Assembly: GCA_009838845.1 (NCBI GenBank)
Contig: VXRD01000124.1
Location: 1 to 64,000, forward strand
Source: Gemmatimonadota bacterium
GTDB taxonomy: Bacteria > Latescibacterota > UBA2968
DNA: 64,000 bases
Reading direction: 5' to 3'
The notes beneath the pieces are model-generated. The model did no database searches. It saw nothing but the letters and a program-made list of their open reading frames with translations, and was not told the DNA's origin. Of this stretch, positions 2,508-11,462 are shown in pieces; position 1 is the stretch's first letter, and every line of letters starts with the position of its first letter. A program made the position numbers and the translations under genes.

Positions 2508-2936
2508 GTGTTCACAATCGGAGTTTTTGGGATTATTACCGATGACAAAGACCGCGTCTTGTTGTGCCACCGACGCGACTTCGATTTGTGGAATTTACCG
2601 GGTGGTGGCGTTGAGGCAGGCGAGAGTCCGTGGGCTGCTCTGGTGCGAGAGATAGAAGAAGAAACGGGTTTGAAAGCTGTGCCCGTCCATCTCAGTGGGG
2701 TGTACAGTAAAACAGATAAGAATGAGATCGTGTTGTCATTTTTTTGCCAGGTTACAGGGGGTACAATCCAGCTTACCGATGAGGCGGATCAGATTGAGTA
2801 TTTTCATTTAGATCGTATCCCGAGCAACACGTCCCTAAAGCAGGTCGAACGCATCAAGGATTACTTCGCGGACAAGACGAGGACCTATTACAAGGTACAA
2901 ACAGGACCTTCTGCTATTGATTTGATCAACGTTTGA
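2508..2936 (+). CDS. Nudix hydrolase
   Basis: A single Nudix domain that would hydrolyse a nucleoside diphosphate linked to another group; the substrate cannot be read from the sequence. The Nudix box is complete: GGGVEAGESPWAALVREIEE, then ETGL, which gives the G-x5-E-x7-RE-x2-EE-x-G metal-binding pattern. I chose GTG 2508 because GAGGGA lies 7 nt before it; the frame continues to a TTG at 2475 with no ribosome site. At about 142 residues it is normal for the family. It is 10 nt upstream of the creatininase gene, so the two are probably co-transcribed. Confidence 0.85.
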   Translation: MFTIGVFGIITDDKDRVLLCHRRDFDLWNLPGGGVEAGESPWAALVREIEEETGLKAVPVHLSGVYSKTDKNEIVLSFFCQVTGGTIQLTDEADQIEYFHLDRIPSNTSLKQVERIKDYFADKTRTYYKVQTGPSAIDLINV

Positions 2937-2946
2937 ATGAGTCAAG

Positions 2947-3690
2947 ATGAAATCCCATAAATTTACTGATTATACGTACTTAGAAATCAAGGATATGGTT
3001 GACGCCGGGTGCCTGGCGATTGTACCCACGGGATGCACCGAGCAACAGGGTCCGCATTTGTCAGTGGATTTCGACACATGGTTTGCGGAAGCTGTTGCGT
3101 TGGAGGCAGCGCAGTATGCGGCACGCTGTCACGATGTACGTGCTCTGGTTTTGCCAGCTATGCCATTTGGTCCCACGCCCGAACATCGGGGTTTTGGCTC
3201 AGGATATGTCAATATCCCGCACGTTGTTCATGAAGCGTATGTCTATTTTGTCCTTGAATCGCTGGCAGAGCAGGGCTTTGGCACTATTGTTGTCTGGCGC
3301 GGCTGCGGTGAGCATCGACTGCAGGAGGCGGTGGACAGGTTCAACGCGAAATTCCATCCGGGATGCAAAGCTTGTCTTCCACCCCTGCCATATCACGACA
3401 TTTGGTGCCGTGTAGCTGATCCCAGCGTTCCAGGTGGTCACGCCGATAGTTTTACGACTTCGATTGCGATGTATCAACGCCCGGACACGGTTAGACTCGA
3501 GAACATCCCTTCGTCCAGTTCAAGAGAAGTGAATTGGGATGATCCGCATCTCGATTTCACAAAATACTCAGATACTGGTGTTATTGGTGATGCGACCAGA
3601 GCGAGTGCGGAGTTGGGACGCAGGCTTTGGGATGAGGTCATATCGACTACAGCGGGGATTTTCAGAGATGCTATTGAACTTTCTGAGTAA
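2947..3690 (+). CDS. creatininase-family amidohydrolase
   Basis: A 247-residue protein of the creatininase family, metal-dependent cyclic-amide hydrolases that include creatininase and riboflavin/coenzyme-biosynthesis members. The N-terminal signature TGCTEQQGPHL and DFDTW supplies Glu, His and Asp ligands. A second conserved block, GGHADSFTTS near residue 165, matches the family's GHAGE-ETS segment. The usual N-HGGN segment is altered here to WRGCGEHR. Length is typical. The true substrate is not known. It follows the Nudix gene by 10 nt and precedes a DoxX gene on the same strand. Confidence 0.8.
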   Translation: MKSHKFTDYTYLEIKDMVDAGCLAIVPTGCTEQQGPHLSVDFDTWFAEAVALEAAQYAARCHDVRALVLPAMPFGPTPEHRGFGSGYVNIPHVVHEAYVYFVLESLAEQGFGTIVVWRGCGEHRLQEAVDRFNAKFHPGCKACLPPLPYHDIWCRVADPSVPGGHADSFTTSIAMYQRPDTVRLENIPSSSSREVNWDDPHLDFTKYSDTGVIGDATRASAELGRRLWDEVISTTAGIFRDAIELSE

Positions 3691-3727
3691 AGGACGACGT
3701 CTGTAAACCACAACAGGGAGGTAAATT

Positions 3728-4162
3728 ATGATTAAGCGACTTGTATTTGGTGGATCGGTTATTGAGTCGATCCCGGCAAATGTCGGGTTGGCGATTCTCA
3801 GGGTGTTTGTAGGGTTGAGTATGGCATTGGGACATGGATTGGGGAAGATCCCACCTTCTGAGCGGTTTGTGACCATTATAGAAAATTTGGGGTTTCCCTT
3901 GCCCGAGTTTTTTGCCTGGATGGCAGCCTTTTCGGAGTTTGGCGGCGGGCTATTGTTGGCACTGGGATTACTCACGCGACCAGGGGCGTTTTTGATATGC
4001 TCGACCATGCTGGTGGCCGGGTTCTTACAACACGCAGCGGATCCATTCAGCACGAAGGAGATGGCATTTCTGTACCTGGTTATTACAGGGATGTTCGTGG
4101 TTATCGGTTCGGGAAAATACGGGATAGATCCTCTGATACGATCGCGTGACTCACATTTATAG
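3728..4162 (+). CDS. DoxX-family membrane protein
   Basis: A 144-residue inner-membrane protein with about four hydrophobic segments. The family signature lies at the start of the first helix pair (LAILRVFVGLSMALGHGLGK) and an FGGGLLLALGLLTRPGA segment follows. DoxX proteins are often linked to redox or thiol stress, but the role of solitary copies is unknown. A strong AGGGAGGT site at 3715-3722 sets ATG 3728. It is 37 nt after the creatininase gene and probably belongs to the same transcript. Confidence 0.82.
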   Translation: MIKRLVFGGSVIESIPANVGLAILRVFVGLSMALGHGLGKIPPSERFVTIIENLGFPLPEFFAWMAAFSEFGGGLLLALGLLTRPGAFLICSTMLVAGFLQHAADPFSTKEMAFLYLVITGMFVVIGSGKYGIDPLIRSRDSHL

Positions 4163-6807: not shown

Positions 6808-7542
6808 ATGGCAAGGAAGAGACTTTGCATAATCGGTTTTGGCAGAATGGGAAAGCAGGCAGTAAATGCATTCGCAGATCAATTCCAAATTGAAGTTATT
6901 TCGAGTCGCGATATAAGCTCTGAACTGGTCGATGTTAGAGCGCGACAGTCAAGCAACAATACTGAAAGTCTTTCCGAGGCAGATGTCATTTTTTTAGCTA
7001 TTCCGGTCTGGGCACTTAGCAAATGGGTTCCGAAGATCAATGAGCATGCCAAATCTGATTGCGTTGTGATTGATTGTTGTACAGCACGACTTGCTGCAGA
7101 TAGGGAACTGTCAACATTGAATCGAGAGAGGTTTGGACTATCGCATCTCGGTCCAGGCAATATACCCCTATTTGGAAAAGCGGATCCCGAGATATCAGCG
7201 TGTTTGAAGCGAATGGGTTGTAAGCTGATCCCCAGGACTGCAGAAGATGAAGATCGCAGAACTGGACCTGGTATGGCACATTTCATTGGGATGGCTCTTG
7301 AACTCTATCTACCGGAGGAAGAGCGCGAGAAGTTGCCATCTGGAGCAGGCAGGTTTCTCCTGCAACTGATTGAACACCTGAATACGAACTCGCCTTCCAC
7401 ATATAGAGAGACGCAATTGCTGAATCCGTTTATGGCAGATGCCCGAAAAAAGGTAATCAAGGCTCTTGTGCAATTCGATGAGGCGCTCAATAGAGGAGAA
7501 TTTAACTTCCAGGCCTATCCGCGCGATAAGTGGAGAGATTGA
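6808..7542 (+). CDS. NAD(P)-binding dehydrogenase, prephenate-dehydrogenase-like
   Basis: A 244-residue protein beginning with a Rossmann dinucleotide site, IIGFGRMGKQ at residues 8-17, and a core like TyrA/ketol-type dehydrogenases (VIFLAIPVWAL, then VVIDCCTARL where prephenate dehydrogenases have the conserved substrate loop). Similar small proteins are often annotated as prephenate dehydrogenase-like; the substrate is uncertain. Its stop codon lies at the right boundary of the IS200/IS605 element (hairpin begins at 7549), so the last residues or the stop may come from the insertion and the native C-terminus could be missing. Confidence 0.7.
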   Translation: MARKRLCIIGFGRMGKQAVNAFADQFQIEVISSRDISSELVDVRARQSSNNTESLSEADVIFLAIPVWALSKWVPKINEHAKSDCVVIDCCTARLAADRELSTLNRERFGLSHLGPGNIPLFGKADPEISACLKRMGCKLIPRTAEDEDRRTGPGMAHFIGMALELYLPEEEREKLPSGAGRFLLQLIEHLNTNSPSTYRETQLLNPFMADARKKVIKALVQFDEALNRGEFNFQAYPRDKWRD

Positions 7543-7690
7543 CGTACTCCCAAAGCTGAAGCATTGGGATTCTTGTTGCTTCAGCAGGGATTGTGGTATC
7601 AACGGCAGTAGCCAGCTATTCAAGCCTGGTCTTACGCTGCCTCCGCCAGAGGTGGACGCCCCCACCTGTGAATGTTTATCGCTGCGTTGA
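7543..7690 (-). ncRNA. probable TnpB-associated reRNA/omega RNA
   Basis: In IS200/IS605 elements the guide RNA of TnpB overlaps the 3' end of tnpB and runs to the right end of the element, where the flanking host DNA acts as guide. Here that interval is about 7690 down to 7543 on the minus strand. It ends in the right-end hairpin (7549-7568), preceded by a second possible fold around 7570-7600. Location is by analogy; the RNA's 5' end is not visible. With tnpB disrupted upstream, the RNA could persist without its protein. Confidence 0.45.
7549..7568. other. IS605 right-end subterminal hairpin
   Basis: CCCAA at 7549-7553 pairs with TTGGG at 7564-7568, with GC/GC inner pairs and a TGAA loop. 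It corresponds to the right-end structure recognised by Y1 transposases in this family. Confidence 0.7.
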
Positions 7691-8300
7691 GGTCTCTATC
7701 TATTTCAAGACCACAGCCACAGCGGAATGTTCTTTCTCGCAATTCAAGATTCTCTTGTAACATGCCACATGCGGAGCATGTCTTAGATGTGGGTAGCCAC
7801 TGGTCGAGTTGCCGAACTGTCTTGCCTGTCTTTTGTGCGACATACTTGAGGATGGTCAAGAAGTCGGCAAAGCCCAGGTCGTTAATCTTTCTGCCCCACA
7901 ACTGTTGGATGGCTTTGATATTCAGCTTTTCAAAGCACATTACGTCATATTGCCTGCAAAGATGGTAGGCAAGTTGCCAGTGATAGTCCCTGCGCTTTGA
8001 GGCAACACGCCGATGCACTCTGGCAAGGTTTACTCTTGCGCTATGGCAGTTGTTGCTGCCTTTCTGCTTACGTGACAGATTGCGGTTGGCTTTTTTCACC
8101 TGTCTGGCGTTGCGAGAAAAGAACAAAGGCGATTGTGTTCGTGTGGTGTCTGAGGCTGTCAGGTATGTTTTCAAGCCAAAGTCAAAGCCTGCGGTTTTAC
8201 CGTTCTTGGCAATGAATGACTTGATACCTTCAGCCTTTGCAACAACACATAGCCACAAGTCACCTACACGGTCACGCTTGATTGTGACCGTCTTGATACT
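7632..8300 (-). pseudogene. tnpB: tnpB, 3' part (RuvC and zinc-finger half)
   Basis: The C-terminal part of a TnpB nuclease, the RNA-guided ancestor of Cas12. Visible are the first RuvC Asp (GFDFGLKTYL), the Glu block CFEKLNIKAI, the four-Cys zinc finger (CSACG and FRCGCG), and the final RuvC Asp (DRDLNAAINI), so every catalytic residue is present. The frame is cut off from its start by the IS3 element at 8301. Removing that element and one copy of the 3-bp duplication joins this part in frame to the part at 9557-9994, giving about 367 residues, a normal TnpB length. An internal TTG at 8258 could give a shorter product, probably inactive. Confidence 0.88.
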
Positions 8301-8355
8301 TGGACTTGACCCGTTTTGGTGGGTACCTTATCAGTAATCAGAAAGGAGCCCCACT

Positions 8356-8670
8356 ATGCCACCAACACGTCCGCCTTATCCAGCCGAGTTGAAACGCCAG
8401 ATCATTGAGCTTGTGCGCGCTGGTCGCTCTCCATCCGAGTTGGCCAAAGAGTTTGAGCCAACCGCCCAGACGATCCAAAACTGGATACGCCAGGCTGATC
8501 GAGATGAGGGCCTTCGAGAAGACGGCCTGAAGAGCGATGAGCGCGAAGAGTTGCGTCGTCTTCGACGTGAGAATAAGCAGTTGCGCATCGAGCGCGAGAT
8601 ACTCTCAAAAGCAGCGGCCTGGTTCGCAGCGGAGACCGACGCGAACCCAAGAAAATCTTCGCGTTCGTGA
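8356..8670 (+). CDS. IS3-family transposase OrfA
   Basis: A 104-residue DNA-binding subunit of an IS3-type transposase. It has an N-terminal helix-turn-helix (from YPAELKRQIIELVRAG to TIQNWIRQADRD, about residues 5-50) followed by a heptad-rich helix (EELRRLRRENKQLRIEREIL) that serves as leucine zipper. AAAGGAG sits 9 nt before ATG 8356. Its stop TGA overlaps the GTG of orfB (GTGA at 8667). In this family OrfA and OrfB are usually fused by a -1 frameshift near the overlap, and the AAGAAAA run at about 8650 is a possible slip site. Confidence 0.9.
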   Translation: MPPTRPPYPAELKRQIIELVRAGRSPSELAKEFEPTAQTIQNWIRQADRDEGLREDGLKSDEREELRRLRRENKQLRIEREILSKAAAWFAAETDANPRKSSRS

Positions 8671-9515
8671 AAGCGCACCAGGCACTTTGGCCTATCGCCA
8701 CACAATGCCGAGTCCTGGGTGTTTCCCTCAGTGGGTATTATGCCTGGCGAACACGTCCACCCTCTAAACGAGCAAAGGTCGATATGGACCTGAAGAAGCA
8801 GATCAAAGTCTTTCACACCCGATCAGATAGCACCTATGGTGCCCCTCGCATCTTTAAAGACCTGATGGATATGGGTATCCGAGTAGGCAAGAAGCGCGTG
8901 GCACGTCTGATGCGTGAGATGACCATTTGTGGCGTTTCTCGCCGCAAGAGCACACGAACGACTGTTAAGGCGCATCAGGATAGAAAGGCTCCCGATCTGA
9001 TAAAGCGCGACTTCACTGTGGCAACGGTCAATAAACTCTGGGTGGCTGACATCACCTATGTACCTACCTGGTCGGGCTTCTTGTATCTCAGTGTTGTCGT
9101 AGATGCCTTCTCCCGCCGCGTTGTGGGCTGGGCAATGGCGAGCCACTTGCAAAGTGAGTTGGTCTTATCGGCTTTAAATATGGCACTTTACCAGCGCCGA
9201 CCCGAAGACGTGATCCATCACTCTGACCAGGGGGCGCAATATACCTCCATAGCATTTGGAAAGCGTTGTCAGGAGGCTGGCGTACGTCCCTCAATGGGAG
9301 CTGCCGGCGACTGCTATGACAACGCACTGTGCGAGAGCTTTTTCGCCACCTTGGAGTGTGAACTGATCAATCGCCGATCCTTCCGTACGCATAAAGAGGC
9401 TCGGTTGGCTATCTTCTCCTACATTGAAGGGTGGTATAATCCGCATCGCAGGCACTCTTCCATTGCTTACCATGCACCGATAGCTTATGAAAAACTGCAT
9501 CAATCACAGGCTTGA
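8667..9515 (+). CDS. IS3-family transposase OrfB (DDE integrase domain)
   Basis: The 282-residue catalytic subunit of the IS3 element. An HTH_21-type region (YGAPRIFKDLMDMGIRVGKKR, about residues 52-72, written in part) precedes the retroviral-integrase-like core. The DDE residues lie in VADITYVPTW, HHSDQGAQYTS and ALCESFFATLE. The C-terminal RRHSSIAYHAPIAYE motif is typical. The frame is complete. GTG 8667 overlaps the orfA stop; the functional enzyme in this family is the OrfAB fusion. Confidence 0.92.
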   Translation: MKAHQALWPIATQCRVLGVSLSGYYAWRTRPPSKRAKVDMDLKKQIKVFHTRSDSTYGAPRIFKDLMDMGIRVGKKRVARLMREMTICGVSRRKSTRTTVKAHQDRKAPDLIKRDFTVATVNKLWVADITYVPTWSGFLYLSVVVDAFSRRVVGWAMASHLQSELVLSALNMALYQRRPEDVIHHSDQGAQYTSIAFGKRCQEAGVRPSMGAAGDCYDNALCESFFATLECELINRRSFRTHKEARLAIFSYIEGWYNPHRRHSSIAYHAPIAYEKLHQSQA

Positions 9516-9556
9516 TACACAAGCCCTAAACTCTCCACCATAGCGGGGTAACTCCA

Positions 9557-9994
9557 ACTATCTACATCGAAGTTTCTGCTTTTATGGTATCTGAATACAC
9601 GCTTGCCGATACGCACTTTGTTACCAGAAAGAAATTTGTAGCCTGCCTGCGCCAGCGTATAGGACTGATACCGAAAGCGTGACCTGAATGTGGGCGGTCG
9701 CTTGTTGTCTCTGGCAAAGAACTTCTGGTAGCCAAAATCTATGCGAAATACCACATCTTGCAATGCCTGAGACGGTAGCGCACTCCAATGACCAAACCGC
9801 TCAGTTTTTTTCAGTTTTGTCAGATGCTTCTTCAGTGCATACTTGTTCGGATACTTATTGAAACGCTGATAGTATCTCTTGTGCAAAGCTATGAAGTGGT
9901 TATACACGCCCGCAAAAGCGTCTATCTCATAGTGCAGGTACTTGTTGCGGTCACACACCGAATACAGCTTGAATTTGTAAGTTATATAGTCCAC
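9557..9994 (-). pseudogene. tnpB: tnpB, 5' part (wedge/REC half)
   Basis: The N-terminal 146 codons of the interrupted tnpB. They start at GTG 9994, overlapping the tnpA stop by one base (TAGTG). The protein begins MDYITYKFKLYSVCDRNKYL and continues with the basic helical segment typical of TnpB N-termini, ending ...KSRNFDVDS at the insertion point. Beyond 9557 the frame reads 19 codons into the IS3 element before a stop at 9500-9502. It belongs with the part at 7632-8300. Confidence 0.88.
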
Positions 9995-10413
9995 TATACG
10001 CCCTTTTGATTTTCGACGTAGCGTTTCAGAACTCCAAGCGTCACTTCGCCAGCGGTTGCTACAAACTTACTCCGCGTCCACAAAGACGGCAATCTGCTTT
10101 TAAGTTCTGGATATTCAGACCGCAGAATATGAGCCGTATAGCCTTTGAGCCTGCCTACAACACTACTCACTGGCTTTGACGGCGTAACAGAAAGAAGCAA
10201 ATGAACATGATCAGACAAGATTTCACAACCTTGCACTTCATAGCCATATTCGCACTGCTTCTCAAGCAATAAGTCTTTCAGTCGGGTTTGCATGTCAACA
10301 GACAGCACTTGGCGTCGATATTTGGTACACCAGACAACATGATAATGGCAACTGAAAACTGCACTGTGCGAGGTGTGATATTTCATGTCAGGACTTTTCA
10401 ACTTCACGATCAA
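9994..10413 (-). CDS. tnpA: IS200/IS605 Y1 transposase TnpA
   Basis: A 139-residue single-strand DNA transposase of the HUH/Y1 family, which excises and inserts the element at replication forks or other single-stranded DNA. The HUH motif reads SDHVHLLLSV (about residues 67-76) and the catalytic Tyr is in VLKRYVENQ near the C-terminus; the N-terminal HVVWCTKYRR segment is a family hallmark. An alternative start at the internal Met in DMKYHTS would match many homologs. Intact, so it could still act in trans on the element's ends even though tnpB is broken. Confidence 0.93.
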   Translation of the reverse strand: MIVKLKSPDMKYHTSHSAVFSCHYHVVWCTKYRRQVLSVDMQTRLKDLLLEKQCEYGYEVQGCEILSDHVHLLLSVTPSKPVSSVVGRLKGYTAHILRSEYPELKSRLPSLWTRSKFVATAGEVTLGVLKRYVENQKGV

Positions 10414-10504
10414 CCCCTTGTGTTAGATTGTATAGGTTCAATCTAATAAATACATAGCACATTGTCATGTAGAATTATTCGAATAGTCTGGTTGATTCAC
10501 CACC

Positions 10505-10526
10505 CATATCGCATATTCGCGATATG
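10505..10526. other. perfect palindrome in IS605 left region
   Basis: CATATCGC (10505-10512) and GCGATATG (10519-10526) flank a 6-nt spacer. It lies between tnpA and the left-end hairpin. It may be an operator or a structure that blocks outside transcription of tnpA. Confidence 0.5.
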
Positions 10527-10569
10527 CCCCAGGCTAAAGCACCGCCCCATAAATTTTAGCGCGTTACAT

Positions 10570-10590
10570 CCCAAGTCTGAAGGACTTGGG
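10570..10590. other. IS605 left-end subterminal hairpin
   Basis: CCCAAGTC (10570-10577) pairs with GACTTGGG (10583-10590) around TGAAG. An outer pairing of GCGT (10561) with ACGC (10595) is also possible. It is the counterpart of the right-end hairpin at 7549. Confidence 0.7.
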
Positions 10591-10616
10591 GATTACGCGC
10601 ATTTCAGCTAAATCGC

Positions 10617-11462
10617 ATGCAGACGTACGAATCAATCATTCGAAATGCGCTAACTGAGCCTGTAGAATCCATTATTCAGTTGGATGAAGGCTGGACGCAT
10701 GTGGTTTTGGAAGTAAACGCGAAGTGGATATTCCGATTCGTTCGGGATCTATCAAATACTCAGCTTGCTGTTGAACAGGCTTTTCTACCCCTTTTCCAGA
10801 AAGACTCACCACTATCGATCCCGGAAATACAGCACTCGGGTAACAACTACATAGCCTATGAAAAGATAGAGGGTGACAAGTTTTCTGAGACGATATTTCA
10901 GAATCTCGGTCAGAGGGAGAGAAAGACTACGGCAGAAGCTTTGGGCAATTTTCTGTCTTGTCTTCACGCCGTTGCATTCGAACACCAGTATATCAAGGTT
11001 GCTCCATTTGGAGGTAAAGATTTTTGGCGGGAATTGTGGCCTGCCGTGTCTCCGCGCCTGCGAGGGCATACTCGGGAGAAAGCCGAAGACTACTTCCAAC
11101 GAGCAATACCGAAAGTCACGTCTGCCACATATCAGAACGTCATTGCTCACTCGGACTTTGGTACCAACAATGTCCTGATTGATGCGGCACAATCAAAGAT
11201 TGTTGGGGTGATTGATTTCGGCGATTTGAGTATCAGCGATCCTGCTGTTGATTTTGCAACGTTTTACCGCAGGTTCGGGAAGCAGTTTGCCGAGGATATG
11301 GTTGAACACTACCAATTGCCTTTGGGGAAGAACTTCTGGACGCGGGTGGATTATGAGTCAAAGCGGAAGCTCTTTTTTGTTGTTTTTTTTGCTCTGAATT
11401 ACGGATTTGAGCAGTACGTACCTGGTGTTGTCAGGGCTATTGAATCCCAATTTGTAGATTGA
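10617..11462 (+). CDS. aminoglycoside-phosphotransferase-family kinase
   Basis: A 281-residue small-molecule kinase of the APH fold. The catalytic loop is canonical: AHSDFGTNNVLID near residue 180, with the catalytic Asp and the metal-binding Asn. The metal-binding GVIDFGDLSISDPAVDFA lies near residue 200. The N-lobe carries the Lys region near KWIFRF. The substrate could be an antibiotic, sugar, amino alcohol or other hydroxyl compound; nothing nearby settles it. The last seven codons fall within the 59-bp repeat shared with 6021-6079. It begins just outside the IS605 left end. Confidence 0.82.
   Translation: MQTYESIIRNALTEPVESIIQLDEGWTHVVLEVNAKWIFRFVRDLSNTQLAVEQAFLPLFQKDSPLSIPEIQHSGNNYIAYEKIEGDKFSETIFQNLGQRERKTTAEALGNFLSCLHAVAFEHQYIKVAPFGGKDFWRELWPAVSPRLRGHTREKAEDYFQRAIPKVTSATYQNVIAHSDFGTNNVLIDAAQSKIVGVIDFGDLSISDPAVDFATFYRRFGKQFAEDMVEHYQLPLGKNFWTRVDYESKRKLFFVVFFALNYGFEQYVPGVVRAIESQFVD

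What the first reader, a model, noticed from the sequence alone, without database searches (positions are those of the whole stretch)
7543..10600. IS3-family element nested inside tnpB of an IS200/IS605 element, in-frame restoration on removal
The 1256-bp IS3 element has TG...CA ends and an ACT duplication on both sides. Removing 8301-9559 rejoins the two tnpB parts with no frame change (...FDVDS joined to IKTVTIKRD...), giving about 367 residues with all RuvC residues and the zinc finger. The disruption is therefore recent, and it separates an RNA-guided nuclease from its guide RNA while tnpA stays intact.
Basis: seen in the sequence. Interest (0 to 1): 0.7.

Follow-up and report, generated by a model that had tools for sequence, protein, structure and literature searches.

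The report
One jumping gene interrupting another
A common bacterial mobile element (IS3 family) has landed inside the RNA-guided nuclease gene (tnpB) of another mobile element (IS200/IS605) in a draft genome related to sponge-associated bacteria; a sister species keeps the uninterrupted version at the same place, so this is a well-documented but ordinary nested insertion.

Summary
A complete 1256-bp IS3-family element (8301-9556, + strand, imperfect 22-bp inverted ends, ACT duplicated at 8298-8300 and 9557-9559) sits in tnpB of an IS200/IS605 element on the - strand. That element runs 7539-10607, slightly wider than reported. Without the insert, tnpB is one 367-residue frame with the RuvC D185/E269/D348 triad and a four-cysteine zinc site.

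The strongest new evidence is an orthologous locus in another species of the genus (G001:C23): same flanking genes (93-95% identity), same IS605 position, and a tnpB that reads straight through the junction. Four other relatives carry the chromosomal site without the IS605 element; there TTTAG is followed by a sequence matching 15-19 of 20 bases of this element's guide, as expected for a TnpB target.

The expected consequence is a tnpA-intact, tnpB-dead element whose guide-RNA region survives beside the RuvC half. 'Recent' is supported only relatively: no stops or frameshifts, and all intact siblings lack the insert. In-frame restoration alone does not show recency. The own assembly holds no intact nucleotide-level copy, but contig ends show unassembled siblings. 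Nested insertions and tnpB-only relatives are known, so interest is low.

The parts
7539..10607 (-). IS200/IS605-family element, left end at 10607 and right end at 7539, carrying tnpA and (interrupted) tnpB
   Evidence: Bounds from empty orthologous sites (GATTTAG|TCTCTCCAC in G007 and G010, AATTTAG in G002) and from where similarity to other copies stops
10608..10612 (-). Target / presumed TAM, TTTAG, retained next to the left end; no target duplication
   Evidence: Present in empty sites of four relatives and at the left ends of the window, G001, G003 and G010 elements
9994..10413 (-). tnpA, 139-residue Y1 (HUH) transposase, intact
   Evidence: Pfam Y1_Tnp E 1.5e-36; NF033573; full alignment to solved IS200/IS605 transposases 2vhg and 2a6m
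9557..9994 (-). tnpB 5' part (codons 1-146), GTG start overlapping the tnpA stop; now runs into IS3 and stops after 164 codons
   Evidence: NF038281 E 3.2e-13
7632..8300 (-). tnpB 3' part (RuvC motifs D185/E269/D348, zinc finger C320/C323/C339/C341)
   Evidence: Pfam OrfB_IS605 and Cas12f1-like_TNB, NF040570 E 5.6e-46; residues
7539..7665 (-). Right end / predicted omega-RNA scaffold ending ...GGGAGTACGTCAA, overlapping the tnpB 3' end; intact. The inner boundary is approximate
   Evidence: Conserved across 17 sibling elements with a consensus fold; no Rfam family at gathering score
7519..7538 (-). Predicted guide, TCTCTCCACTTATCGCGCGG (chromosomal flank)
   Evidence: Matches 15-19 of 20 bases next to TTTAG in empty sites of G007, G002, G010 and G004
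8301..9556 (+). IS3-family element, 1256 bp, complete, inserted in tnpB in opposite orientation
   Evidence: full-length relatives at 89-90% in G005, G007 and G001
8301..8322 (+). IS3 left inverted repeat
9535..9556 (-). IS3 right inverted repeat
8298..8300 (+). ACT target duplication, left copy
   Evidence: 3-bp duplication (CAC) also seen at the G007:C1 copy
9557..9559 (+). ACT target duplication, right copy
8356..8670 (+). IS3 orfA (helix-turn-helix)
   Evidence: HTH_Tnp_1 E 9.2e-9
8667..9515 (+). IS3 orfB (DDE integrase core)
   Evidence: rve E 2.1e-26; NF033516 E 3.7e-101

Best explanation
An intact IS200/IS605 element (tnpA plus tnpB with an overlapping 3' guide-RNA region) sat 3' of a TTTAG target in the chromosome. 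A complete IS3-family element then transposed by ordinary DDE transposition into tnpB after codon 145/146, duplicating ACT. Shown: the geometry, the intact orthologue without the insert, and the intact tnpA, left end, right end and guide. Inferred: TnpB is now a 164-residue N-terminal fragment without RuvC, so guided cutting of the empty donor site is lost. The element should still be movable by TnpA but no longer protected from loss at its own site, unless a sibling TnpB acts in trans.
For: IS3 ends, 3-bp duplication and intact OrfA/OrfB. Orthologous locus G001:C23 is colinear with the window on both sides at 93-95% and has uninterrupted tnpB at the exact junction. Empty IS605 sites in G002, G004, G007 and G010 define the element ends and TTTAG. 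Sixteen homologues with at least 77% TnpB identity are open over residues 3-366 or more. Catalytic residues and PDB match to ISDra2 TnpB. A 3-bp duplication (CAC) flanks another full-length copy of this IS3 family. Published: TnpB cuts the TAM-flanked donor joint and tnpB is dispensable for transposition (PMC8612924); nuclease-dead TnpB loses the retention/drive advantage (PMC11870625).
Against: The assembly is fragmented (172 contigs) and IS3 ends also occur at other contig ends (C68, C140), so the interior of the assembled IS3 could be a consensus of several copies. G001's tnpB from about residue 121 onward is 96-100% identical to G003:C114, so it has probably undergone gene conversion across the junction and is not a clean ancestral state on its own. 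Another full-length IS3 copy (G001:C24) shows no matching 3-bp duplication. Whether all cells carry the insertion is unknown.
Confidence: 0.94

Rival explanations
1. Assembly artefact: the assembler joined two unrelated IS3 flanks through a collapsed repeat.
For: Other IS3 copies in the same genome end contigs with 55-bp identical stretches; the genome is a draft of 172 contigs.
Against: Both flanks are the two halves of one tnpB with a matching ACT duplication, and chromosomal order on both sides matches G001:C23. A random join would not do this.
Confidence: 0.02
2. The nested IS3 is old and tnpB a long-standing pseudogene.
For: There is no absolute date, and the window's nonsynonymous share is slightly above the sibling mean.
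Against: No stop or frameshift in either half, catalytic residues kept, nonsynonymous share (0.46/0.44) within the sibling range, and no homologue shares the insertion.
Confidence: 0.07
3. The split gene keeps a function: the 208-residue RuvC/zinc-finger half is expressed from an internal TTG start or an IS3-borne promoter and works with the intact guide region, or with the N-terminal half.
For: A 208-aa frame from a TTG start and an intact right end exist.
Against: The N-terminal half of TnpB is missing from that product. No expression data. None of the homologues examined shows such a split.
Confidence: 0.03

Closest known systems
ISDra2 (IS200/IS605, Deinococcus radiodurans)
   Same: Y1 TnpA of about 140 residues, TnpB with RuvC and zinc finger, target 5-mer retained at the left end, guide-RNA region at the right end (PMC8612924)
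   Different: Target here is TTTAG (inferred) rather than TTGAT; tnpB is interrupted by IS3; tnpA and tnpB overlap by one base
IS3-family elements (model NF033516)
   Same: Two overlapping frames orfA/orfB with HTH and DDE core, TG...CA ends, 3-bp duplication
   Different: Subgroup not assigned; how OrfAB is made (frameshift or GTGA coupling) not resolved
IS605-type elements of Haloquadratum attacked by other mobile elements (PMC3119063)
   Same: One mobile element inserted in an IS605-type element; many tnpB without tnpA
   Different: There the attackers are short repeats that mostly hit outside the coding region; here a complete IS3 within the tnpB frame

Membership tests
IS200/IS605 family | Y1/HUH TnpA | tested here: met
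   Pfam Y1_Tnp E 1.5e-36; alignment to solved IS200/IS605 transposases
IS200/IS605 family | Insertion 3' of a short target, without target duplication | tested here: met
   Empty sites in G007, G002 and G010 join TTTAG directly to the right flank
IS200/IS605 family | Structured left and right ends | tested here: inconclusive
   Right-end fold shared by 17 siblings; the left end is shared by G001, G003 and G010 copies but was not folded
TnpB RNA-guided nuclease | RuvC D-E-D triad and zinc finger in one intact protein | tested here: not met
   All residues are encoded but the frame is split by IS3. The orthologue G001:C23 is uninterrupted
TnpB RNA-guided nuclease | Guide RNA from the right end, targeting the TAM-flanked donor joint | tested here: inconclusive
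   Guide sequence matches empty sites next to TTTAG at 15-19 of 20 bases; no RNA or cleavage data
IS3 family | OrfA HTH and OrfB DDE core | tested here: met
IS3 family | TG...CA inverted ends and short target duplication | tested here: met
   3-bp duplication also at the G007 copy
IS3 family | OrfAB made by -1 frameshift | not tested
   orfB is in the -1 frame and overlaps orfA by GTGA; no slippage site was established

The most novel reading that the evidence does not exclude
A split arrangement: in this genome the only assembled tnpA of the subfamily lies in the element whose nuclease is broken, while unassembled tnpB-only siblings (right ends at contigs C58, C113, C105) may supply TnpB in trans, so transposase and nuclease would be provided by different copies.
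Probability: 0.08. Interest if true: 0.35.

Novelty: new member of a known kind. Interest (0 to 1): 0.2.

Why it matters
It is a clean natural knock-out of tnpB with an uninterrupted orthologue at the same locus and empty sites in other species. That makes it a usable natural comparison for whether TnpB promotes element retention. The event itself, one insertion sequence inside another, is commonplace.

Tried and rejected
Rfam search for a known guide-RNA family: no hit at gathering score. An intact nucleotide-level copy in the own genome: none; the other TnpBs there are about 30% identical. Branch-specific substitution counts using G003 and G010 as outgroups were discarded: G001's 3' tnpB is nearly identical to G003:C114, probably by gene conversion, so the apparent excess on the window branch is not interpretable. 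A second tnpB truncated near the same position (L047) is not an IS3 insertion but a junction with unrelated sequence. The idea that a mosaic breakpoint lies at the IS3 junction, which would suggest misassembly, was rejected: identity changes at about 9690, away from the junction. Laying the whole genome for scripts was not available.

Full report
Observation. The window at 8301-9556 holds a complete 1256-bp IS3-family element in the + direction: imperfect 22-bp inverted ends with TG...CA, ACT on both sides, and two open overlapping frames with HTH and DDE domains. It lies inside tnpB of an IS200/IS605 element on the - strand, whose tnpA (139 residues) is intact and overlaps the tnpB start by one base. 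Joining the two parts gives 367 codons without a stop. The protein aligns to ISDra2 TnpB and has D185, E269, D348 and cysteines 320, 323, 339, 341.

Is it real? The strongest evidence is comparative. In G001, another species of the same genus, contig C23 carries the same locus: the genes on both sides match at 93-95%, the IS605 element is at the same position, and tnpB runs without interruption through the exact junction. This answers the assembly-error worry, although copies of IS3 do end other contigs in this draft genome. Sixteen homologues with at least 77% TnpB identity in the genus are open over at least residues 3-366, and none of those aligned has extra sequence at the junction.

The host element. 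In G007, G002, G010 and G004 the chromosomal site has no IS605 element; TTTAG is followed directly by a sequence matching 15-19 of 20 bases of the sequence abutting the window's right end. This fixes the element ends, shows no target duplication, and gives TTTAG as target and probable TAM. The right end...GGGAGTACGTCAA, is conserved in 17 siblings with a shared predicted fold that extends into the tnpB 3' end, as expected for an omega-RNA scaffold. The adjoining 20 bases are then the guide, and the empty sites are what that guide would target. In ISDra2, TnpB with the right-end RNA cuts the TAM-flanked donor joint, and tnpB is dispensable for transposition (PMC8612924). [quoted passage not shown] that is inference.

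Consequence. The N-terminal product is 164 residues (146 native, the rest read from IS3) without RuvC. The RuvC and zinc-finger half keeps a 208-residue frame from a TTG next to the intact guide region. The likely result is a transposition-competent element without its retention nuclease. Inactivating TnpB removes the advantage of an IS200/605 element in plasmid competition (PMC11870625). Nothing here measures activity.

Recency. In-frame restoration is automatic when an insertion and one copy of its duplication are left out, so it is not evidence of age. Relative recency is supported by intact frames, kept catalytic residues, a nonsynonymous share (0.46 and 0.44 in the two halves) close to the sibling mean of 0.42, and the absence of the insertion in every homologue. 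A caveat is that G001's tnpB, from about residue 121, is 96-100% identical to G003:C114 at a different locus, which points to gene conversion. Its uninterrupted state could in principle be a repair by such conversion, though all other siblings are uninterrupted too.

Context. A complete tnpA of this subfamily was found only in the window element, G001:C23 and, at 60% identity, G006:C37; most siblings are tnpB-only. The own assembly has no other nucleotide-level copy, but three contig ends (C58, C113, C105) carry right ends most like the tnpB-only element G001:C180, so intact siblings are probably present and unassembled. Named relatives from the genome collection are mostly Candidatus Latescibacterota MAGs, with records labelled Gemmatimonadota and Poribacteria among them. 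The sponge association is inferred from isolate labels and the literature on sponge Latescibacterota and was not tested.

Verdict. A real, precisely defined nested insertion, confirmed by an uninterrupted orthologue. Mobile elements inserted in IS605-type elements and tnpB copies without tnpA are already documented (PMC3119063). Ordinary, with modest value as a natural tnpB knock-out.

Noticed in passing
window 9958-10438 and 9690-9937; G001:C23 (L051): 481-bp and 248-bp blocks identical between two species whose flanks are about 94% identical, covering tnpA and the start of tnpB; G001's tnpB from about residue 121 is 96-100% identical to G003:C114. Suggests recent gene conversion or exchange between element copies across species.
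   Followed up: partly
G001:C180, G001:C96, G010:C472, G009:C73, G006:C26, G004:C51, G003:C30 and others (L085-L105): Most sibling elements have intact tnpB but no tnpA, while left- and right-end sequences persist in several; nuclease kept without its own transposase.
   Followed up: partly
G008:C1 (L144-L149, e.g. L146:1072-1410): About ten places (six aligned, near-identical) carry only the last part of a tnpB and a right-end-like sequence ending GTCA, lying directly upstream of the start codon of a repeated gene (MAEYDTISKHLIQTYPADF..., not searched against a family library). Fossil, or a retained guide RNA upstream of a gene; unexplained.
   Followed up: partly
G000:C58, C113, C105 contig ends and C21:17513-17618 (L011-L014): Ends of related IS605 elements at contig ends show collapsed, unassembled siblings in the window's own genome.
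   Followed up: partly
G002:C12:101500-104200 (L078): The empty TTTAG target with its flank occurs twice about 1.5 kb apart, so the chromosomal target region is partly duplicated there.
   Followed up: no
L047 (JAJEDY010000031), 2917-3825: A sibling tnpB cut after about residue 175 and joined to unrelated sequence, leaving a 302-residue chimeric frame.
   Followed up: partly
window 10617-11462: Aminoglycoside-phosphotransferase-like gene (APH fold, Pfam E 1.3e-22), far below the curated cut-offs of resistance models, next to the element's left end.
   Followed up: no
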